A stretch of 56,313 nt of DNA from a virus. The notes below the pieces were generated by a model. It ran no database searches and had not been told where the DNA came from. It saw nothing but the letters and a program-made list of their open reading frames with translations. The DNA lies in IMG/VR virus record IMGVR_UViG_3300031788_000018, positions 1 to 56,313 of that record. The stretch is one strand, 5' to 3'. Shown here in pieces: positions 4,448-36,771 of the stretch (the stretch's first letter is position 1; every line of letters starts with the position of its first letter). The position numbers were made by a program, and so were the translations under genes.

Positions 4448-5059
4448 ATGTATTTATTAGAAATTGAGGGTGTAGATGGATGCGGCAAGTCAACGGCAGT
4501 AAAATATGTAGTGGAACAATTGAGAATTCGAGGTTACAAAACACTAGAGACTAGAGAAGTAGGCAATATACATATACCATTCTGTTCCAAGCTTAGAGAA
4601 TTAATTCTAGATCCCGAATACAAATTATCGGGAGAAGCTATGGAGCTTGCATTCTCATGTATGCGAACAGAAAATCAGAGATTCTATAGATCTGTAGAGA
4701 ATGATTATGATTTTTGCGTAAGCGATCGTGGGTTATTAAGCCATGCTGCCTATGGTGAACATAATGCGACTAGAGAATTTATGGAGGACTTATATTTTAA
4801 TATACTTAATAAGTATACAATACCTCCCGATATGGTCCTTTTTCTAGACGTAAAACCAGAGATGGCTCTAGCTAGAAGACAGAAACGCAATGGTTTCGTA
4901 GATGCTATTGAAGCTAAAGGTCAAGAGTTCCAAGTTAAGGTATTGGATAGCTTTCATAAGTACATTGAACAACTAGACTTACCTGTGACTTTTATTGACG
5001 CAAATCAAGATCTTGATAATGTTAAACGTCAAATAGATGAGTTAATTGAGGCATTATGA
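4448..5059 (+). CDS. tmk: Thymidylate (dTMP) kinase
   Basis: It phosphorylates dTMP to dTDP for phage DNA synthesis. The Walker A loop is GVDGCGKST near residues 8-16, a DR[GH]-type motif appears as SDRGLLSHAAYGE, and a lid-like region MALARRQKRNG lies near residue 140. Length (203 aa) matches bacterial Tmk. I choose the ATG at 4448 because AAAGG sits about 8 bases upstream and the beta strand leading to the P-loop follows at once; the upstream ATG at 4424 lacks a ribosome binding site. The C-terminus ends IDELIEAL, and its codons contain GAGG just before the next gene's ATGA overlap, the same coupling device used by the tail family. Confidence 0.9.
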   Translation: MYLLEIEGVDGCGKSTAVKYVVEQLRIRGYKTLETREVGNIHIPFCSKLRELILDPEYKLSGEAMELAFSCMRTENQRFYRSVENDYDFCVSDRGLLSHAAYGEHNATREFMEDLYFNILNKYTIPPDMVLFLDVKPEMALARRQKRNGFVDAIEAKGQEFQVKVLDSFHKYIEQLDLPVTFIDANQDLDNVKRQIDELIEAL

Positions 5060-5271
5060 GAAATAATATAGACAAAGATAATAAACCTCTCAATGGCGAG
5101 CATATCAAGACAGTGCACTACTATTCGGGAGTCTTCATGGGGTCCCAAGAAGTGCGTATTGCAGAATATAAAGTATGGTATTTAAATAACAAAGAATTAA
5201 CCGAACTAGAATTCAAACAATATCAACGTAATAGACAGTTCAACGACAATATCAATGAGGCTTTAAAATAA
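5056..5271 (+). CDS. Tail-family small protein (one WYLNN unit plus conserved C-tail)
   Basis: 71 residues starting MRNNIDKDNKP, overlapping the dTMP kinase stop by ATGA. It has one repeat-like piece (YKVWYLNNKELTELEF) and the conserved tail QRNRQFNDNINEALK shared with many proteins in this window, but no HREDGPA unit. Here the stop is TAA and no gene follows in the same direction, so the coupling role of the tail is not used. Function unknown. Confidence 0.8.
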   Translation: MRNNIDKDNKPLNGEHIKTVHYYSGVFMGSQEVRIAEYKVWYLNNKELTELEFKQYQRNRQFNDNINEALK

Positions 5272-5274
5272 TTA

Positions 5275-5324
5275 GGGCCGACGTTTTAAGTCAGCCCCCA
5301 ATGGAGAGTGGCGGAGCGTCCGCC
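5275..5324. terminator. Paired hairpins between converging genes
   Basis: Two hairpins lie between the converging genes. GGGCCGAC (5275-5282) pairs with GTCAGCCC (5290-5297) with one G-T mismatch, and GGCGGA (5310-5315) pairs perfectly with TCCGCC (5319-5324). T-rich stretches follow on both sides: GTTCTTTT on plus, TAATTATTTT on minus. They probably terminate transcription from both directions. Confidence 0.6.
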
Positions 5325-5344
5325 GCTAGGATGTTCTTTTGCTA

Positions 5345-7273
5345 TTAGGTTATAGCGTTACTTTGTAAGGTAGCAGCTGTTTGAGCTAAGATACGTCCGC
5401 TTAAAGAAGCACTGGTTACTAAAGCGACGCTTGTTTGCGCTAATACAATACCACTAAATACAGCATTTGCTCCAATGGTTACAGCTCCGGCAACTTGCCA
5501 GAAGATATTGGAAGCAACTACTCCACCACTTAGAATGATACTGGTGGAAGCTGACATTACTAATGTACCGGCGATTTGGAATATGAAAATATCGTTTGGT
5601 CCACCGGAAATTGTCACGTTAGTTGGAATCGTTACGCCACTTGTCCATTTGTATAGACCAGGAGTTAATGTTAATCCGCCAAGATTACCAGAACCTAGAT
5701 TTGTAAAATCAGGAGTTGGTCGGCCAGCCGCGTCCGTATAGGCTGTTCCCATGTCACTTATTGCTGTAGTCAAAGTCGCTGGAGTAGGAGAAGCGTAATC
5801 TGCTGCGAATACATGTCCGCTTACTAATGAAGAGGTAGAGAAGGTTCCACTTCCATCTAATATTAGACCGAAACCGGTTATTGCCGTTGAAGCTATAGGG
5901 CTTACTGCAATAGCGCCAGTGATAAAAGATCCAGCTGTTGTGGAAATGCCAGACTCAGCTAAGATCTTATAGTTAGCAGATGTTCCTAGGTCAACGGTTG
6001 CTAAACTGTTAGCGATATTAAAAGTATCGCTAGCGATTGTGAACGAGACTGTCCCGCCGCCGCCGGTAGTGTCAGCTTTAGTTGCTAATAAAGTTTTATT
6101 ACCGTATAAGTTTATCTTAACCCCTTTACCTACGAAGTCAGCTACACCCGCAACAGCAGCCATGGTTACTGTACCGGATAGAACTCCGGTTCCTGAAAGA
6201 AGTGATAGAGTAATAGAAGCAGTAGCATCTGCACCAGTCGTTACTGTTGCGCCTGAAGCATCTTTAATGGTTACGATAGGTTGAGTAGGAAAAGCGACTC
6301 CAGCTACACCTGCTGAAGGTTGTGTTGAAAACACTAAGTGAGTAGCGACACCTGCTGATCCAGTAATCACGTAAGCTGCACTTGCGATTGCGGAATTAGC
6401 TAGACCTGATTTGGTAGCTAATACCTTAATAGTTTCGCTAGCGCCAACCGAGATCGCTGTTACGTAAGGTGTACTTGAAATCGTAGGAGAGGATCCATCC
6501 AATGTATAGAACATTGACGCACCGGCTGTAGAGCAAGAAAGGGTTACAAATTGTGTCCCAGAATAAGTTCCAGCTGGTAAAGAGAAAGTAGGAGTAGCGA
6601 CTAAAACTACAGTTGCAGTAATGCTGACTACTGATCCGGAAACGGATGTAGATAAAGCTACGGTTCCAGCAGCAATCGCTGTCAGAGTCTTTGTAGCGAC
6701 AGCTGCAGCAGTATCACTGGCGTTTATAATGACTTCGATACCAGTGAACCCGGCTGGAGCTGGATCAACTACGCTGCCACCTAGAACGCTATACCATACA
6801 TAATACTTATTAGCGTCTCCGCCGTTGTACAGTTCAACGTATCCGGCTGTTCCAGTTGTAGGGAAAGAACTTCCTGCTGGAGCGCTTAAACTTACTATTT
6901 GAGCTTGTGTAACTCCGGAATTTGCCACTTCTAATCCGTAAGTTATTGGCATTCCTACTAAAGATGGAGCAGTTATAGCGTTAGATACTGCGTTTGAAGA
7001 TGCGATTGCTGCTACGGCGTCTTGAGCTACTTGAGCATTAGCAAAGCCTTGGCTCATATATTGAATATCTTCTGCTGAAAGAATTCCCTTGTTGATCATA
7101 GCGGCTTGTAGATTTAAAGCAGCTTGTTGACTACCTAAAGCTATGATTAGTCTATCTAAAGTGAATGTTGATAAAACCGATCCATTTTCAAGAGCGCTAA
7201 TCAACTCCAACCCAGCTGCTTGGCTAGTTAAAGCATTGATAAAATAATCATTATCGAATTTAGAAATGGCCAT
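5345..7273 (-). CDS. Modular surface protein with C-terminal ice-binding (DUF3494-type) domain
   Basis: About 642 residues. The N-terminal ~100 are helical and Ala/Gln-rich. A beta region follows, then a chitobiase-C-like module near residues 225-310 (TYSGTQFVTLSCSTAG, MFYTLDGSSPT) and an Ig-like module near 310-425 (LVFSTQPSAGVAGVAFPTQP). The last ~210 residues match the DUF3494 ice-binding fold: LGTSANYKILAESGIST, ITGFGLILDGSGTFSTSS, ADYASPTPATLTTAISDM, LTPGLYKWTSGVTIP, then a Ser/Ala/Val beta solenoid ending GRILAQTAATLQSNAIT. No signal peptide is present, so export as a virion part is likelier than secretion. The start is the ATG at 7273 with AAGGAG upstream. Probably a fibre, adhesin or capsid decoration; ice binding itself is inferred from family. 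Confidence 0.8.
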   Translation of the reverse strand: MAISKFDNDYFINALTSQAAGLELISALENGSVLSTFTLDRLIIALGSQQAALNLQAAMINKGILSAEDIQYMSQGFANAQVAQDAVAAIASSNAVSNAITAPSLVGMPITYGLEVANSGVTQAQIVSLSAPAGSSFPTTGTAGYVELYNGGDANKYYVWYSVLGGSVVDPAPAGFTGIEVIINASDTAAAVATKTLTAIAAGTVALSTSVSGSVVSITATVVLVATPTFSLPAGTYSGTQFVTLSCSTAGASMFYTLDGSSPTISSTPYVTAISVGASETIKVLATKSGLANSAIASAAYVITGSAGVATHLVFSTQPSAGVAGVAFPTQPIVTIKDASGATVTTGADATASITLSLLSGTGVLSGTVTMAAVAGVADFVGKGVKINLYGNKTLLATKADTTGGGGTVSFTIASDTFNIANSLATVDLGTSANYKILAESGISTTAGSFITGAIAVSPIASTAITGFGLILDGSGTFSTSSLVSGHVFAADYASPTPATLTTAISDMGTAYTDAAGRPTPDFTNLGSGNLGGLTLTPGLYKWTSGVTIPTNVTISGGPNDIFIFQIAGTLVMSASTSIILSGGVVASNIFWQVAGAVTIGANAVFSGIVLAQTSVALVTSASLSGRILAQTAATLQSNAIT

Positions 7274-27557: not shown

Positions 27558-28601
27558 TTAAGCGTCCAGTTTAATAATCTCTTTCAAAATCGCATCAGCA
27601 AGTTTCTGATCGGTTTTGATAGCGTTGGCACATTCCATTTTGGACGACCATTTATGATCGCCAAAGAAATAGTTTCTCATGCCTTCTTTCTTAATTATAC
27701 CAGTGTTTGTTCCTAAAGTAAAGAGTTCTTCATGAGTATTAATAATTCCGTCTTTATAATCTAAAGTAAACACTCCCGCTCGACCGGCTGAGCCGATGGA
27801 GCTTTCCTCTAGTTTAACAAATATTTTATGACCTGTCAACAGTTTGTTTCCACGAGCATCTTTTATATCGTCTTCAAAAGAAATACCTTCCAAGTCTTTG
27901 CGATCTTCTGCGGCTCCTGCACGTTTGAGGCTGACGAAGTATTCAAAAGCATGCTTGGTAGCAAAAGACGATTGCATCTTCTCTTTTGGACCGTATGGTC
28001 CGGCGTCCATATTGGCGGTCATCTGCGCTGTACCTATGAGTAAAATACCATTACGTTTACAAAAAGGAACTAATTTAGAAAGACCATTTTTCAATGTAAG
28101 AGCCGCATCGCCCATTAAATGGGAAGTAACAGATTCTGCGCTTTCCCTTTTAACTCCAATAATATTGGAAATGGAGTCGATAATTATCATTTTCAGTGGC
28201 ATACCTTCTTCAACCCAAGATTTTATCGTGCCATCAATTCTGTCGAATATATCTGCCGGGCTATTGGTATCGTAAACAAAAAGGCGATCTTTATCTATGC
28301 TAGAGAAAACATTGGATTGCAAAGCCCCCCTGAGTTCGGTATTGAAGTAAATAGCGATTCCTTCGGGGTCTCTTTTTTGCATCTCTGCCACTAAAGCATA
28401 ACAAGACAGAGATTTTCCCGCTTTAGGGCTTGAGAAAAATAAAACTGACGCATTTTTTGGGATTCCATTAGATTTATTGGCGAAAATCCAATTGAAGAAC
28501 GGCGATGGAGTGTACATACAATTATCTGGAGCAAATGAGTCCGCTTCTAAATCTACTGAATCCTCAAAAGATCTTAATTGTTTCATCCATTTATTACTCA
28601 T
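27558..28601 (-). CDS. uvsX: RecA-like recombinase (UvsX type)
   Basis: About 347 residues from the ATG at 28601 (AAGGAAG upstream). Walker A is VLFFSSPKAGKSLSCYALV near residue 58; Walker B is LKMIIIDSISNIIG near residue 135; and the nearby GILLIGTAQMTANM is the Q-loop, followed by a disordered L2-like stretch. This is the layout of phage UvsX/RecA strand-exchange proteins. It drives recombination and recombination-dependent replication with the neighbouring UvsY-like and gp32-like proteins. Its start overlaps the end of an intruding GIY-YIG gene. Confidence 0.85.
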   Translation of the reverse strand: MSNKWMKQLRSFEDSVDLEADSFAPDNCMYTPSPFFNWIFANKSNGIPKNASVLFFSSPKAGKSLSCYALVAEMQKRDPEGIAIYFNTELRGALQSNVFSSIDKDRLFVYDTNSPADIFDRIDGTIKSWVEEGMPLKMIIIDSISNIIGVKRESAESVTSHLMGDAALTLKNGLSKLVPFCKRNGILLIGTAQMTANMDAGPYGPKEKMQSSFATKHAFEYFVSLKRAGAAEDRKDLEGISFEDDIKDARGNKLLTGHKIFVKLEESSIGSAGRAGVFTLDYKDGIINTHEELFTLGTNTGIIKKEGMRNYFFGDHKWSSKMECANAIKTDQKLADAILKEIIKLDA

Positions 28602-29574
28602 AGTTTTCTTCCTTTTTAGTATAGTAAGCAAAAGTCATACCACCAGCGGTTTTGGCGTACCCTCTTATTACTCTAGATATTGAACTACCATCTATATTAA
28701 GAGTCAAAGCCGCTTCCTTAATACTACCATATAATATATTAGTAGTCAAGCATATTACTGGCTTTCTATTTATTGTACCCATATTTATAGCTGAACTGAG
28801 TCTTTGACTATTAGTCTTTTTTTGTCTAACATCTGAGATATTGTCTGCTTTACATTTTCTTTTTGAATCTATAAATTCAAATTTCATACCTTTAGCTATA
28901 TTCGTATAGCCATTGCAAACGCAGTGGATAGATTGAACAGAAATATTCATGATTTTTGATGCCTCTATTAAACTTTCGAATATCTGTCCAGTATTTACAC
29001 ATTTAATCTTCAACGCTTTAGTTTTATTTAGCTTTAACATTGCTATTTTTACATTATTATTTCTAGTATTTATTCTATCATTCTTACGTTTTTCACTAGC
29101 TTCTCTAAGAGATTTATCTACATATTCAAAACTAAGACCACCAGCAGTATCGGTTAAACCTCTACAAACAGCAGATATATTCGTTCTATTAAGACTTAAC
29201 TTATCAGCAGCATCTTGTACGCTGCTGTACGATTCTCTAGTATTTTTACATATGACAGCTCTCATTCTTAGTTTTATAGCTTCATTTATTCCGCCAGTAC
29301 CACCTTTATGTTTATTATACCCATTTGGGCGAATAGTGTTCAGCTTATCTATCCAATATCTTTCTTTTTCTACTAATTCCTTTTTATCATTGACTATTTC
29401 TAAAGTAATATATGTAAAATTTTCTTTACTATACTGTTTTATAGCTTTTGTTAGAAAACTGTTGTTATTTCTATTAGCTGTTGTATGTTGTAAAAATCTA
29501 GCTTCCACTGTTCTTTTGGTAATTCCTACGTATTGTTTCTTATCTATTTTATTAGTTATACAATAAACGAACAT
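28594..29574 (-). CDS. GIY-YIG homing endonuclease with three NUMOD1-like modules
   Basis: About 326 residues from the ATG at 29574. GIY-YIG core: MFVYCITNKIDKKQYVGI, R/H in VEARFLQHT, and the catalytic Glu in ELVEKERYWIDKLN. Three DNA-binding modules follow, each with a small beta/helix-turn-helix pattern: RESYSSVQDAADKLSLNRTN, GQIFESLIEASKIMNISVQS and NILYGSIKEAALTLNIDGSS, each ending in a GG-x-x-FE/Y strand. It lies between the uvsY-like and uvsX genes and overlaps both, which suggests insertion with little polar damage. Confidence 0.9.
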   Translation of the reverse strand: MFVYCITNKIDKKQYVGITKRTVEARFLQHTTANRNNNSFLTKAIKQYSKENFTYITLEIVNDKKELVEKERYWIDKLNTIRPNGYNKHKGGTGGINEAIKLRMRAVICKNTRESYSSVQDAADKLSLNRTNISAVCRGLTDTAGGLSFEYVDKSLREASEKRKNDRINTRNNNVKIAMLKLNKTKALKIKCVNTGQIFESLIEASKIMNISVQSIHCVCNGYTNIAKGMKFEFIDSKRKCKADNISDVRQKKTNSQRLSSAINMGTINRKPVICLTTNILYGSIKEAALTLNIDGSSISRVIRGYAKTAGGMTFAYYTKKEENYE

Positions 29575-29575
29575 A

Positions 29576-30127
29576 TTAATATTTTCCACCACTCGTCACA
29601 TATAAGTTACGGTCAGTCAGACCGCTTCGAATAATCATATCCATTTGTTTACGCATGTATCTTGTTACGTTTTCAATGACCTTAATTCTATTTTCTACAA
29701 AACTTTCAGTGGCATTCAATCGATCGAACAACTCTAAAGCTTCAATATATTCAGGATCTTTCATCAAGAAAGCGTTACGTAAGTCCGCATTATCCTGAGA
29801 CTTGGGTCTATCTTTCATGAATTCTGGATACTTATTGATCACGATCTCAGCTTTAATCAAATCTATCTGGCGCTGTACTTGTACTTTGCGATATCCTAAA
29901 GTGGTATGATGTCTCTTTAATTCGCGATATGACTCGTTGAAGGTGTGTTCTAAATCCGCATAAGTTATTGGATTAACGGTCTTAGCTTCTATAAATCTTG
30001 ACTCCGACTCCCTGGTCTTCGATAGATCCAATGAGAGGGCTGGCAAATTCCTGAAAGCAGGAATTGCCAGCGCCATTGAATCGCCTTGAGCTATAACCGG
30101 GCTGATTTTATTATCTTGCTCGCTCAT
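29576..30127 (-). CDS. Putative UvsY-like recombination mediator
   Basis: 183 residues, mainly helical. The central region SYRELKRHHTTLGYRKVQVQ and RQIDLIKAEIVI, followed by a C-terminal helix (NRIKVIENVTRYMRKQMDMI), resembles UvsY-type mediators in length and character. It lies directly between the gp32-like and UvsX genes. A mediator would load UvsX on gp32-coated ssDNA. Sequence similarity alone is weak, so the call rests mostly on context. Confidence 0.55.
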   Translation of the reverse strand: MSEQDNKISPVIAQGDSMALAIPAFRNLPALSLDLSKTRESESRFIEAKTVNPITYADLEHTFNESYRELKRHHTTLGYRKVQVQRQIDLIKAEIVINKYPEFMKDRPKSQDNADLRNAFLMKDPEYIEALELFDRLNATESFVENRIKVIENVTRYMRKQMDMIIRSGLTDRNLYVTSGGKY

Positions 30128-32564: not shown

Positions 32565-32593
32565 AGTTTATCACATTTTATAATAGAAGTCAA
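32565..32593 (-). promoter_or_regulatory. Sigma70-type promoter for 32307-32543
   Basis: On minus, TTGACT (32588-32593), 17 bases, TAAACT (32565-32570). It overlaps the last codons of the dnaE C-terminal gene, with a ~15-base leader. Confidence 0.6.
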
Positions 32594-33702
32594 TTAGTTT
32601 CAATCACTACATTCATTAAAGAGAGCTCTTGCCTGCCAACTCGTTTCTTCAGGAATAAAGTAGCTATGACGCCCTTTTTTAGTGCTTCAGGATAGTTCAA
32701 CTCACCGGAATTATAGTCGGGCCAAATGACGCGCTCGGATACATGTCCGTCAGCGTCTATGATAAGTTTTAAAGCTTTCTTGAGTCCTTTGGCGTAGGTA
32801 AATTCTTTAGCATCCGTAATGAAAGCGGTAACGGCCACGTACTTATCCTTTTGAATATCTTCCCCCGGTTGTTCGTCTAGCGCTTTTAGTTCGGCTCCAG
32901 TGAGCAAAATAGAACCATATCCATTTGCGCTTTGAACTCTAGGTACTTCGGCATGAGGCAAAATTACCTTAGAATGCTTTCTAGCTAAACTATGGAGATC
33001 AATAGGAAAACTAGGTAGAACAGCTTTCTTTAGAGCAGCATCCTGAATCGGGCTTAAGTTCAAGTATTCTTCTGGAATCTGGCCCTTTTTAGGTCCCGTA
33101 GCCCTTAGTTTTTTGCCATCTATACGTGCTTCTTCTTTCTTGACTTCGAACTTCTTTAATTCCAAAGCATCCTCATAGGCCTGAATTCTATCCAAGAACG
33201 TAAACTCTACAGGGAATAAGCTATCTAGAACTCCTACATGGATCAGACGTCTGGTAACACTATATCCTGCAACGTCTTTCTCAATGAATTCATGGATATC
33301 CTTATAAGGACGACCTTCGACTATTGGAGTAATAGTGGCTTCGCCGATCCCTCTTATTATTCCAAGCTTGGATCTGATCTTCTTAGATCTATAATCCACA
33401 ACCATGACGTCGGTAGACAGATTGATATCCGGTGGCAAAAGCATGTCTTTTACATAAGGCCAAAATTGGCCTGAGATCTCAGTTTCAGTCGCATTGGTCA
33501 GAATCGCAGTCCACCATTCTAGGGGATAAAAATGCTTTAAGAACATGCAAGCATAAGTGATGTAACTGTAACCTATTGAATGGATGCAATTATGAGCAAC
33601 AACGCCATTACTTAGTAAGAAGTTGTTTTTACTAGGCATTTCAATGTCATAAACATTCTGTAAGCCTATAGATTTTATGGATTTAATCTTTAATTTTCGC
33701 AT
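32590..33702 (-). CDS. dnaE: Split-intein C-fragment fused to the C-terminal part of DNA polymerase III alpha (DnaE-C)
   Basis: From the ATG at 33702 the first 38 residues are an intein C-fragment: MRKLKIKSIKSIGLQNVYDI, then the block F/G end FLLSNGVVAHN followed by the +1 cysteine. The rest (332 residues, CIHSIGYSYITYACMFLKHF onward) continues the DnaE palm/fingers with RGIGEATITPIVEGRPYKD (the helix-hairpin-helix/tudor side) and ends in an OB-fold region. An ATG at 33729 would add nine residues; I prefer 33702 because the fragment then matches the ~36-aa length of DnaE IntC pieces. The protein must be trans-spliced to the N-half at 33934 to make an active replicase. Confidence 0.88.
   Translation of the reverse strand: MRKLKIKSIKSIGLQNVYDIEMPSKNNFLLSNGVVAHNCIHSIGYSYITYACMFLKHFYPLEWWTAILTNATETEISGQFWPYVKDMLLPPDINLSTDVMVVDYRSKKIRSKLGIIRGIGEATITPIVEGRPYKDIHEFIEKDVAGYSVTRRLIHVGVLDSLFPVEFTFLDRIQAYEDALELKKFEVKKEEARIDGKKLRATGPKKGQIPEEYLNLSPIQDAALKKAVLPSFPIDLHSLARKHSKVILPHAEVPRVQSANGYGSILLTGAELKALDEQPGEDIQKDKYVAVTAFITDAKEFTYAKGLKKALKLIIDADGHVSERVIWPDYNSGELNYPEALKKGVIATLFLKKRVGRQELSLMNVVIETN
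33589..33702 (-). other. Intein C-fragment (IntC)
   Basis: 38 residues; NVYDIEMPSKNNFLLSNG is the block F-like segment and VVAHN the C-terminal His-Asn pair that cyclises, followed by extein Cys+1. It strongly resembles the C-fragments of cyanobacterial DnaE split inteins (NVYDI...NFxLxNGxxAxN). Confidence 0.9.
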
Positions 33703-33947
33703 ATAAAACTTTCTAATATCTCTGGCCATTTATCTTCATCTAAATCCCAGAATATCCACAACCGATATCCCAGTTCTTCAGCTATACTTTGTTTAATGAT
33801 ATCATTTTGTATATTTTTGTCAACCATTTTAATCAATTTATCACTATTAGACAAGGTGCACTTCAAGGCAATATGCTGTTTAAGGGTATTGGCAGTCACT
33901 TTTCTACCGCATTTGCAAATTACTGGTGGCTTATTATTCTTGGCCAT
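33690..33947 (-). CDS. Small zinc-finger protein between the split-intein halves, possible endonuclease remnant
   Basis: 85 residues, lying in a different frame exactly between the two intein halves and overlapping both (14 bases with the N-part, 13 with the C-part). Residues 9-31 have a C-x-C...H-x4-C zinc-finger pattern (VICKCGRKVTANTLKQHIAL, then KC). The end, IAEELGYRLWIFWDLDEDKW, resembles the last strand and helix of VSR/EDxHD-type homing endonucleases (x-GY-x-V-x-x-I-W-x-x-D). A full catalytic core is absent. It may be the worn-down homing gene that split dnaE, or a small DNA-binding protein. GGATTC lies upstream. Confidence 0.7.
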   Translation of the reverse strand: MAKNNKPPVICKCGRKVTANTLKQHIALKCTLSNSDKLIKMVDKNIQNDIIKQSIAEELGYRLWIFWDLDEDKWPEILESFICEN

Positions 33948-36771
33948 AAAAGAATCCTAACTCTACCATCTCTTTAGCTGTCTTCCACAGCCCATTTTCA
34001 TCCATAAAAAGATGATCACTTGTGCATTTTATTAGACTTCCGTCTTCTAATTCTATTTCAAATACTTCTTTAATTCCCTGATCAAACCAATGTGAGGGGG
34101 ATTCGTATTTTACTTTATTATCATCGAGGTAGGCGATTTCCATTTTAGTTTCATAAGCTTCTTTGATAGTTCTAACACCTAATTTAGTCTGGATCAATTG
34201 ATCCTCGGTAAAACAACTGAATCCATATCTACCGAATGTAACCATCTGTTCCCAGATCAGTTCAGCGGTCTCCAACGACGTATTCTTCGAAGCTCCCTCA
34301 AGAAATGCTGGCTTAATTTTCATTAATTCAGTCATCTTCTTTTTAGCCATATTCTCGCGCAGTAACTCGGCTGCCTCATTGGTAAATCCAGCTAAGACTT
34401 TTGCAATTGTAGACAACTGTTCTTGGAACACAATAACTGAATGAGTTTCAGGTAGAATATCTGCTAGTTCTTTTATCTTAGGAGTAGTGTTGCCTTTACG
34501 TAGCTCCACGTATTCTTCAGCCATGTTTCTACCGGTATCGGCGTCAACGAAGTCCAATGGGCCTGGACGAACCAGGGCAAGTATGAGTCCTAAATCATAG
34601 ATGCTATCCGGTAGAATCTCCATAACAAAAGGAGTCATACTTCTAGAGTTGATCTGGAATAGAGTTTCCGTAGCGCCGCCCCAAATACTCCTAAAGACTT
34701 CTGGTAGTTCTGGAAGATCCCAGATATATAGCTGTTTATCTTTGTGGATAAACTGCCCTACTTCTAGGGAGGAATCGCTTCGTTTATTGATTAGATCTAG
34801 GCAGATTCGGATGTCTTTTAACTGGCTTACAACCAGGAAGTCGTATTTAATGAGTCCGGCGGCTTCCGATTCTTTGGCCTCATATTGAGTTATATGACCT
34901 TCTTTGGTAGGTATAGTATCTTTGATAGGGATATCTGAGAGCAAAAAAGCGCTTGCGTGAGTGGAGAATGCACGAGTTAGGCCCATAGCTTTGGTTACTA
35001 TATTCCAGTCCTTAGGATGTTTTTTTACATAGTCTTTCAGATCATCAGACCCTTCGATTAGACCTGGAACATGTCCTTCATCTTTATCTTCGAAACCAAA
35101 GACGAAGTCTCTATCGGAAATTCCTTGTGGAGGCGGAGGTAGACCTTTAGTGAGGGTTTCGATATAAGGTTCAACTTTACCGTTATTTAAATATCGATGA
35201 ACATCTTTAATAGCTGATTTAAGTCTTATAGTAGTTCTGGTACTAATTTGAGCAGCTTTATCGCTCCAAGTATTATATAGGTATCCGGATTTATTGTCTT
35301 TACCTACTAGTAATTCACGATGTTCAAGGTCAACATCGACATCAGGAAGCTTCCCCATCATAATCCGCTCCATAGAGAAGAAACGGTTGAATGGCAAATC
35401 CCATTTGATTGGATCTAACTGCGTGATTCCAAGTAGATAACAGAACAGCGATCCACCAGCAGACCCACGGCTCGGCCCAGTTAGCTGACCATTTTCCTTA
35501 TAATGATTCAATACATCTCTAATAGGTAAAAAGTAAGCTGTGAGATCTTTTTTGCCGTTTTTAGCTATAACATTGAGTTCGTACCTTAATCTCTCAACAT
35601 AGGTAGAATCATCCCACCTCATTCTCCCATTTTCACGAATAATGACCATAGCTTGCTTTAAGGGATCTCCGCCGCTATCAGCGAGGCGCCATTCATAAGT
35701 TAAAGTTAAATTGTCGAACAAGGAGGCCCATTTAGTATTGTTCTCTAGAACAGCTTCGGCCTGAAGGACTGTCAAATTCATTTGTTTAGTGAGATAGCTT
35801 ACGATCTCGTCTTGGTTCTTCATGTGGAAGTTCGGTTGAAGTTTTGTGTCGCCTTCTAGGCGCATAGCTTGGACTATCTTGTCCTCTTTGTTTGAGTAGT
35901 AAGCGTAATCAGTCGCAAGTATTGGCAAGTTATACTTATTTGCCAAAGCACGCAGGAATTTATTGACTCTTAGTGTTACATCGCCTCCTGGAAGGGGAAT
36001 AAAACCTTTATGTTCAACTACTTCTTTAATAGCCTTATCTATCGGATAGTAAATCAGATTATCTGACTTATTTTTGATTCTGGTATGCAAATTGCCGAAT
36101 AGAAGGTTAGAAGCCTTGATTCTTCTGGCTTTATCTGTAGTTACCCAATCAGTTGATTTTAATATATCTTTAGAACCGTCTTGATATCTGATTTCAACTA
36201 AGGAACACCACATCTTAGTCCAAGGTTCACAAAGCATAGAAACACGAATTCGGTTACCGAATATCTTGATTAACTTAGATAGCACTTGATTCCCAATAGT
36301 GGCCTGCTCGGCCAACATCGGTTTGGAGACCAAGCAATGGATGCCGCCTAGGACTATATTAGTATTGAATTTAGAGATAGCGTCAAGATCAGCCCAGGTC
36401 CATAATTGGTGAGCTTCGCCTTGAACTGTAACGTAATCTGAATCAGTCTTACTAGCGATCCTACAAAGCGCTTGATAAGCTTCTTGATCTTCGCAATAGA
36501 CTGTAGTTGTGAAATACTTAGCTTTCGCAATATTGCCTTGTGTCAATAAGGTACAAGTAGGATCTTTGAAATAGATCTCCATACCAGGGATAAATTTCAA
36601 GCCTGCTTTCTTAGTTAGACCGTACGCTTTTAATGCTGAGGACAGATGTCCAAGGTCAGTATAGGCAAAGTATTCTCTACCAAGCTCTTTAGCTCTGTCG
36701 ATCATATGAGCCAGCGTGCTGCCTGTTAAAGGGGATTCGGGATGTGTGTGCGGTGAAACCAGGAAAGACAT
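33934..36771 (-). CDS. dnaE: DNA polymerase III alpha N-terminal part (DnaE-N) fused to split-intein N-fragment
   Basis: 945 residues. Residues ~1-260 are a PHP domain (FLVSPHTHPESPLTGSTLAH, YFAYTDLGHLSSALKAYG). The polymerase core includes TGPSRGSAGGSLFCYLLGIT and the catalytic MMGKLPDVDVDLEH near residue 475, then NIVLALVRPG-like ILALVRPGPLDFVDADTG. It ends VTFGRYGFS before the intein Cys at residue 853. The 93-residue IntN follows to the stop. Exteins total about 1,184 residues after splicing, normal for DnaE. It is part of an operon with the AAA ATPase and DnaQ-like exonuclease upstream. GAGGAATAAGAA precedes the ATG. Confidence 0.92.
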   Translation of the reverse strand: MSFLVSPHTHPESPLTGSTLAHMIDRAKELGREYFAYTDLGHLSSALKAYGLTKKAGLKFIPGMEIYFKDPTCTLLTQGNIAKAKYFTTTVYCEDQEAYQALCRIASKTDSDYVTVQGEAHQLWTWADLDAISKFNTNIVLGGIHCLVSKPMLAEQATIGNQVLSKLIKIFGNRIRVSMLCEPWTKMWCSLVEIRYQDGSKDILKSTDWVTTDKARRIKASNLLFGNLHTRIKNKSDNLIYYPIDKAIKEVVEHKGFIPLPGGDVTLRVNKFLRALANKYNLPILATDYAYYSNKEDKIVQAMRLEGDTKLQPNFHMKNQDEIVSYLTKQMNLTVLQAEAVLENNTKWASLFDNLTLTYEWRLADSGGDPLKQAMVIIRENGRMRWDDSTYVERLRYELNVIAKNGKKDLTAYFLPIRDVLNHYKENGQLTGPSRGSAGGSLFCYLLGITQLDPIKWDLPFNRFFSMERIMMGKLPDVDVDLEHRELLVGKDNKSGYLYNTWSDKAAQISTRTTIRLKSAIKDVHRYLNNGKVEPYIETLTKGLPPPPQGISDRDFVFGFEDKDEGHVPGLIEGSDDLKDYVKKHPKDWNIVTKAMGLTRAFSTHASAFLLSDIPIKDTIPTKEGHITQYEAKESEAAGLIKYDFLVVSQLKDIRICLDLINKRSDSSLEVGQFIHKDKQLYIWDLPELPEVFRSIWGGATETLFQINSRSMTPFVMEILPDSIYDLGLILALVRPGPLDFVDADTGRNMAEEYVELRKGNTTPKIKELADILPETHSVIVFQEQLSTIAKVLAGFTNEAAELLRENMAKKKMTELMKIKPAFLEGASKNTSLETAELIWEQMVTFGRYGFSCFTEDQLIQTKLGVRTIKEAYETKMEIAYLDDNKVKYESPSHWFDQGIKEVFEIELEDGSLIKCTSDHLFMDENGLWKTAKEMVELGFFYGQE
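33937..34215 (-). other. Intein N-fragment (IntN)
   Basis: 93 residues starting CFTEDQLIQTK (block A) with block B EDGSLIKCTSDHLFM carrying the conserved T-x-x-H-type pair. HWFDQGIKEVFEIELEDGSL closely resembles the corresponding part of cyanobacterial DnaE-N inteins (W-x-D-x-G-x-x-EVFE-x-x-LEDGSLI). No endonuclease domain is attached. Confidence 0.92.

What the first reader, a model, noticed from the sequence alone, without database searches (positions are those of the whole stretch)
32590..36771. DnaE replicase fractured by a split intein
Seen: the DnaE N-part ends in a 93-aa intein N-fragment (CFTEDQLIQ..., EDGSLIKCTSDHLFM) and the C-part begins with a 38-aa intein C-fragment (NVYDI...NGVVAHN) before extein Cys+1. 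Known: the fragments resemble cyanobacterial DnaE split inteins, and fractured phage genes with split inteins have been reported from metagenomes. The insertion point, FGRYGFS | CIHS, appears to lie about three residues downstream of the cyanobacterial DnaE site (EY | CFNKSHS), so this may be a separate allele. The phage replicase would be active only after trans-splicing, which could be a useful new split-intein pair.
Basis: partly seen in the sequence, partly recalled or inferred. Interest (0 to 1): 0.9.

Follow-up and report, generated by a model that had tools for sequence, protein, structure and literature searches.

The report
Split-intein phage replicase with dead endonuclease
A phage DNA-copying enzyme is encoded as two separate pieces carrying the halves of a protein-splicing element (a split intein) that probably stitch it together, and a wrecked DNA-cutting gene between them, intact in related phages, shows that the element was once a mobile 'homing' parasite.

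Summary
In this 56.3-kb virus record, dnaE is cut into DnaE-N + 93-aa IntN (33934-36771, minus) and 38-aa IntC + DnaE-C (32590-33702, minus). Both intein halves pass curated NCBIfam cut-offs. The joined intein is closest among solved inteins to cyanobacterial Npu DnaE (E 3e-18, about 34% identity), with Cys1, TxxH and HN|C all present. It is an internally deleted remnant of a Vsr-like homing endonuclease: full-length 355-358-aa versions sit in the same place in two related phages (L002, L064), and their catalytic core is predicted to fold like Vsr and I-Bth0305I.

Five phages carry this split intein at the same site (YGF[N/S]|[K to C]), three residues downstream of the cyanobacterial site. They show the endonuclease intact (two), as a remnant (window, L068) or deleted (L030), and are scattered among intein-free relatives. 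A related split cassette sits four residues further on (L107, L184).

This is the known 'fractured gene' arrangement in a phage replicase, at a distinct insertion site, seen at successive stages of endonuclease decay. Trans-splicing is strongly expected but not shown.

The parts
34216..36771 (-). DnaE N-extein (852 aa): PHP, palm, finger; catalytic motifs PDVDVD (residue 476 on) and IKYDFL (residue 641 on)
   Evidence: Pfam PF02811, PF07733, PF17657; aligned to E. coli PolIII-alpha; positions
33937..34215 (-). IntN, 93 aa: Cys1, block B TSDH; stop codon at 33934-33936
   Evidence: TIGR01445 over cut-off; PDB match Npu DnaE; alignment with four sister inteins and Npu
33690..33947 (-). 85-aa ORF: remnant of a Vsr-like homing endonuclease, keeping the N-terminal CxCG finger and the C-terminal ~50 residues, catalytic core deleted; overlaps IntN by 14 nt and IntC (ATG 33702) by 13 nt
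   Evidence: profile of three intact relatives, E 1.9e-8 among 42,990 frames; alignment; BLASTP to the L002 ORF 5e-9
33589..33702 (-). IntC, 38 aa (alternative upstream ATG at 33729): block F VYDI, block G VVAHN
   Evidence: TIGR01443 over cut-off; same length and start MKKL/MRKL in L002, L030, L064
33586..33588 (-). Cys+1 codon, first C-extein residue, at the position of E. coli K758 of YGFNKSHS
32590..33588 (-). DnaE C-extein (332 aa), HhH domain and later regions
   Evidence: Pfam PF14579 HHH_6; 56-60% identity to intein-free relatives

Best explanation
It is a fractured phage dnaE. Two separately started genes make DnaE-N-IntN and IntC-DnaE-C. The intein halves associate and, through Cys1, the terminal Asn and Cys+1, splice the exteins into one replicase of about 1184 aa (inferred: class-1 trans-splicing). 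The element reached dnaE by homing: a Vsr-like endonuclease gene that overlaps both halves cut intein-free dnaE alleles at the conserved YGFN|KSHS codons, and repair copied the cassette in (inferred from intact relatives, scatter and divergence pattern). In this phage the nuclease has lost about 270 codons including its active site, so the element is probably immobile but retained, because dnaE is restored only by exact removal. The 85-aa remnant may persist merely because its ends overlap the signals of the neighbouring genes.
For: Intein halves over curated cut-offs with all splice residues kept in five divergent copies. Intact 355- and 358-aa ORFs in the same overlapping position in L002 and L064, of which the window ORF is a remnant. 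Catalytic core model pLDDT 87, best PDB match Vsr 1vsr (prob 0.99), I-Bth0305I 3r3p also listed, viral homing and Vsr endonucleases at E 3e-4 to 1e-3. Carriers scattered among intein-free dnaE genes, at least 7 changes over both sites; the window's sister L018 is intein-free. L030 against L064: intein synonymous divergence 33/81 versus 461/618 in exteins, p 3e-9, and intein dN/dS 0.07 although L030 has lost the nuclease. No other DnaE finger domain in the record.
Against: No splicing or cleavage was measured. The intein tree is too poorly resolved to show transfer on its own. Foldseek E-values against PDB are weak (0.03 for Vsr, 0.8 for I-Bth0305I), and the nuclease has no sequence match in PDB or Pfam. 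The record is a fragment, so another polymerase could lie outside it.
Confidence: 0.88

Rival explanations
1. Assembly or sequencing error: the true gene is one ORF with a contiguous intein, broken artificially by frameshifts.
For: Single contig; N- and C-part are in the same frame.
Against: Fifteen stops lie in that frame between the halves. L002, L064, L107 and L184 show the same overlapping three-ORF layout and L030 the two-ORF layout.
Confidence: 0.02
2. The three frames are expressed as one polyprotein by programmed frameshifting, so the intein works in cis with an embedded nuclease.
For: Short overlaps of 13-56 nt at both joints.
Against: The relative frames differ between loci, each ORF has its own start codon, often with a purine-rich stretch upstream, and L030 has no middle ORF at all.
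Confidence: 0.03
3. A decayed split intein that no longer splices; the two DnaE fragments either assemble non-covalently or the gene is dead and the phage uses another polymerase.
For: The window DnaE-N holds the catalytic aspartates; the record is only a genome fragment.
Against: All splice residues are kept although the intein is only 42-53% identical to its sisters; exteins are intact and colinear with relatives; the intein is under purifying selection in the L030/L064 pair.
Confidence: 0.06
4. The 85-aa ORF is a retained functional small protein (for example a DNA-binding regulator or a translational coupler for IntC-DnaE-C) rather than a mere remnant.
For: It is in frame over 85 codons while the other two frames hold many stops, and it overlaps both neighbours. 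L068, in a distant phage, keeps the same two ends.
Against: The L068 counterpart is broken by stops, and L030 does without the ORF. A recent in-frame deletion would look the same.
Confidence: 0.15

Closest known systems
'Fractured genes' (Dassa et al. 2009, NAR 37:2560; known to me from memory, paper not held)
   Same: Conserved enzyme gene interrupted by a split intein, with a free-standing endonuclease gene between the halves, in phage-like metagenomic DNA; nuclease of Vsr-like fold
   Different: Here the host gene is dnaE at the YGFN|K site and the nuclease is deleted to a remnant; intact forms are in relatives. Whether this dnaE site is among the published loci could not be checked
Pseudomonas phage MIJ3 split PolB intein with HNH ORF (PMC6892783)
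   Same: Phage DNA polymerase split by an intein with a homing-endonuclease ORF between the two halves
   Different: B-family polymerase and HNH nuclease; here C-family DnaE and Vsr-like nuclease
Cyanobacterial split DnaE intein (Npu, Ssp)
   Same: Closest solved inteins, same gene, similar split position (IntN about 100 aa, IntC about 36 aa), no active nuclease
   Different: Inserted three residues upstream (Y|CFNKSHS); about 33% identity; genes not overlapping and in a bacterial chromosome (own knowledge)
Contiguous mini-inteins in DnaE of Rhodococcus phages NiceHouse, Trina, Weasels2, Francesca
   Same: Phage DnaE, same conserved motif
   Different: One residue downstream (YSFNK|SH), Ser+1, contiguous, 19-22% identity to the window intein
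I-Bth0305I / EDxHD homing endonucleases and Vsr
   Same: Predicted fold of the intact relatives' catalytic core; a recognised phage homing-endonuclease family (PMC3943268)
   Different: No significant sequence match in PDB; the window copy lacks the core

Membership tests
Split intein (class 1) | N- and C-splicing domains on separate ORFs fused to complementary exteins of one protein | tested here: met
Split intein (class 1) | Cys1, block B TxxH, penultimate His plus terminal Asn, Cys/Ser/Thr+1 | tested here: met
   C1, TSDH, HN|C in the window; the same residues in four sisters
Split intein (class 1) | Trans-splicing activity | not testable with these tools
   needs expression of both halves
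Fractured gene with free-standing homing endonuclease | Endonuclease ORF between the intein halves | tested here: inconclusive
   Window: remnant only. Intact in L002 and L064, and at site B in L107 and L184
Fractured gene with free-standing homing endonuclease | Intein-free alleles exist at the same site | tested here: met
   most of 80 viral dnaE loci are empty at this site
Vsr-like / EDxHD homing endonuclease (intact relatives) | Vsr-like fold of the catalytic core | tested here: met
   AF2 pLDDT 87; best PDB match 1vsr, prob 0.99; 3r3p also listed
Vsr-like / EDxHD homing endonuclease (intact relatives) | Conserved acidic and His active-site residues | tested here: inconclusive
   YDI, LIEMHG, H and ND invariant in three intact ORFs, but not mapped residue by residue onto I-Bth0305I
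Vsr-like / EDxHD homing endonuclease (window ORF) | Catalytic core present | tested here: not met
   core deleted
Cyanobacterial DnaE split-intein allele | Insertion at Y|CFNKSHS of DnaE | tested here: not met
   window site is YGFS|CIHS, three residues downstream

The most novel reading that the evidence does not exclude
The nuclease-less split DnaE intein of cyanobacteria descends from a phage 'fractured dnaE' cassette of this kind: such cassettes invade the YGFNKSHS motif at adjacent codons, lose their Vsr-like nuclease as in the window and L030, and stay split. The window's intein is nearest Npu DnaE among solved inteins, but the intein tree does not resolve the point.
Probability: 0.15. 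Interest if true: 0.75.

Novelty: new member of a known kind. Interest (0 to 1): 0.55.

Why it matters
Fractured genes raised the question of how a split intein stays mobile and what is left when its nuclease dies. These loci show, in one gene and at one insertion site, an intact nuclease, two remnants and a near-clean deletion, with the intein still split each time. They also show one ten-residue DnaE motif invaded at adjacent codons by different inteins. This gives a testable model for how orphan split inteins, such as the widely used cyanobacterial DnaE pair, could arise, and several untested split-intein pairs.

Tried and rejected
A scan for close relatives of the 85-aa ORF found none. Pfam, PHROGs and PDB sequence searches did not classify the ORF or the intact nucleases with confidence. 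A full-length AF2 model of the nuclease was poor (pLDDT 44), so the core alone was modelled. A genome-contig scan gave only two intein-free phage-like dnaE loci in MAGs. The intein tree has too little signal to place the window intein or Npu, so discordant phylogenies are not claimed from it. Cultured phages hold no homologue of the nuclease by tblastn. The 2009 and 2012 key papers on metagenomic split inteins were not in the library. Sequencing error and programmed frameshifting were considered and rejected.

Full report
Observation. On the minus strand dnaE lies in two ORFs, 33934-36771 (945 aa) and 32590-33729 (379 aa). The first ends with a 93-aa IntN; the second begins with a 38-aa IntC if started at the ATG at 33702. 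Both halves pass the NCBIfam intein cut-offs and Pfam Intein_splicing spans them at 4e-14. Among solved proteins the joined intein is nearest Npu DnaE, 3e-18. The record is a virus contig of 56,313 bases; several relatives' contigs are about 170 kb.

Insertion site. Joined DnaE aligns without a gap to intein-free relatives: window RYGFS|CIHS, L003 RYGFS|IIHA, L007 RYSFN|KSHG, E. coli GYGFN|KSHS (chain positions N757|K758). The cyanobacterial element sits after the Y (KFAEY|CFN, PMC7851486). The allele is therefore three residues downstream. Rhodococcus phages carry contiguous mini-inteins one residue further on, YSFNK|SH, and L075 has an intein in the same stretch, with its C-junction before SHAV.

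The third ORF. Between the halves, and overlapping both, is an 85-aa ORF (33690-33947). In L002 and L064 the same place holds 355- and 358-aa ORFs, 46% identical to each other. A profile of three such ORFs finds the window ORF at 1.9e-8 and an L068 fragment at 2.5e-8 among 42,990 frames. The window ORF keeps the N-terminal CxCG...H finger and about 50 residues from the C-terminal region; the part between is gone. The missing core, modelled from L064 with four relatives, has pLDDT 87. It matches E. coli Vsr best and lists I-Bth0305I, and matches phage homing and Vsr endonucleases in the viral library. EDxHD is a recognised phage homing-endonuclease family with I-Bth0305I as example (PMC3943268).

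The family. Of 80 viral dnaE loci inspected at the junction, this site is occupied in L002/L025, L030, L064 and L068; all others are empty except L075. The stages are intact nuclease (L002, L064), remnant (window in frame, L068 broken) and deleted (L030, 81-nt gap). A second site four residues downstream (FNRSHS|CAY) has split inteins with related nucleases in L107 and L184. On a tree of 62 DnaE proteins the split carriers are scattered: the window is sister to intein-free L018 (96), L030 and L064 group with intein-free L035, and L068 is remote; at least 7 changes of state are needed over both sites. L068 and the window share 53% of the intein but 30% of DnaE, whereas L002 and the window share 46% and 54%, which fits lateral movement.

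Mobility and constraint. Between L030 and L064 the intein differs at 33 of 81 synonymous sites against 461 of 618 in the exteins (p 3e-9), and intein dN/dS is 0.07. This fits recent co-conversion of the cassette with splicing function kept. Caveat: IntC overlaps the nuclease frame in L064 by 56 nt, which restrains its synonymous sites; IntN alone (29 of 59.5) still differs from its extein (p 5e-5).

Mechanism. Shown: anatomy, homology, decay series, scatter, and selection in one pair. Inferred: trans-splicing, nuclease cleavage of empty dnaE, and immobility of the window's copy. Programmed frameshifting is unlikely, because the frame relations differ among loci and L030 has no middle ORF.

Known versus new. 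The arrangement matches 'fractured genes' (Dassa 2009, from my own knowledge; paper not held) and the published MIJ3 PolB case. A cultured example with a different nuclease is the helicase of Pectobacterium phage Amona. I file the window as a new member of that kind: a distinct dnaE site and an explicit nuclease-decay series. Whether this site was catalogued before could not be checked, and metagenome contigs could not be scanned.

Noticed in passing
L107 (IMGVR_UViG_3300032265_001778) and L184 (IMGVR_UViG_3300047562_005130): Split DnaE inteins with intact related nucleases at a second site, FNRSHS|CAY, four residues downstream of the window's site; the intein and nuclease are far more alike between the two phages than their exteins.
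   Followed up: partly
L185 3575-6685 (Pectobacterium phage Amona) and L186 (phage Ymer): Cultured phages whose DNA helicase is fractured: IntN ORF ending after LIDE|C, overlapping LAGLIDADG endonuclease ORF, then IntC-helicase (...VAHN|CQH). Annotated only as hypothetical protein, homing endonuclease and helicase.
   Followed up: partly
L011, L013, L014, L017 (Rhodococcus phages NiceHouse, Trina, Weasels2, Francesca); L012 (fecal phage): Unannotated contiguous mini-inteins of 142-156 aa in DnaE at YSFNK|SH, one residue downstream of the window's site.
   Followed up: partly
L075 about 4750-6000 (IMGVR_UViG_3300050138_000621): DnaE with IntC-like end ...GVVTSN|SHAV in one long open frame, while another frame carries a 353-aa ORF with zinc-finger repeats and a Vsr-like core: nuclease and intein frame overlap extensively.
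   Followed up: no
L068 2687-5678 (IMGVR_UViG_3300032053_016284): DnaE appears to be in three pieces: PHP-like N-terminal ORF (341 aa), polymerase-IntN ORF (595 aa) and IntC-C-part, with a 60-aa ORF between the first two.
   Followed up: no
window 28594-29592 (-): GIY-YIG homing endonuclease with NUMOD repeats among the replication genes.
   Followed up: no
L002-L008 just downstream of dnaE (e.g. L002 7148-7954): A subtilisin-like protease gene follows dnaE in these relatives but is not seen directly downstream of dnaE in the window.
   Followed up: no
L180 and L181 (Saccharibacteria and Elusimicrobia MAG contigs): Contigs filed under bacterial MAGs carry the same phage dnaE neighbourhood (phosphoesterase and small ORFs upstream, in L181 an SSB-like ORF downstream), so they are probably phage contigs binned with bacteria.
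   Followed up: no
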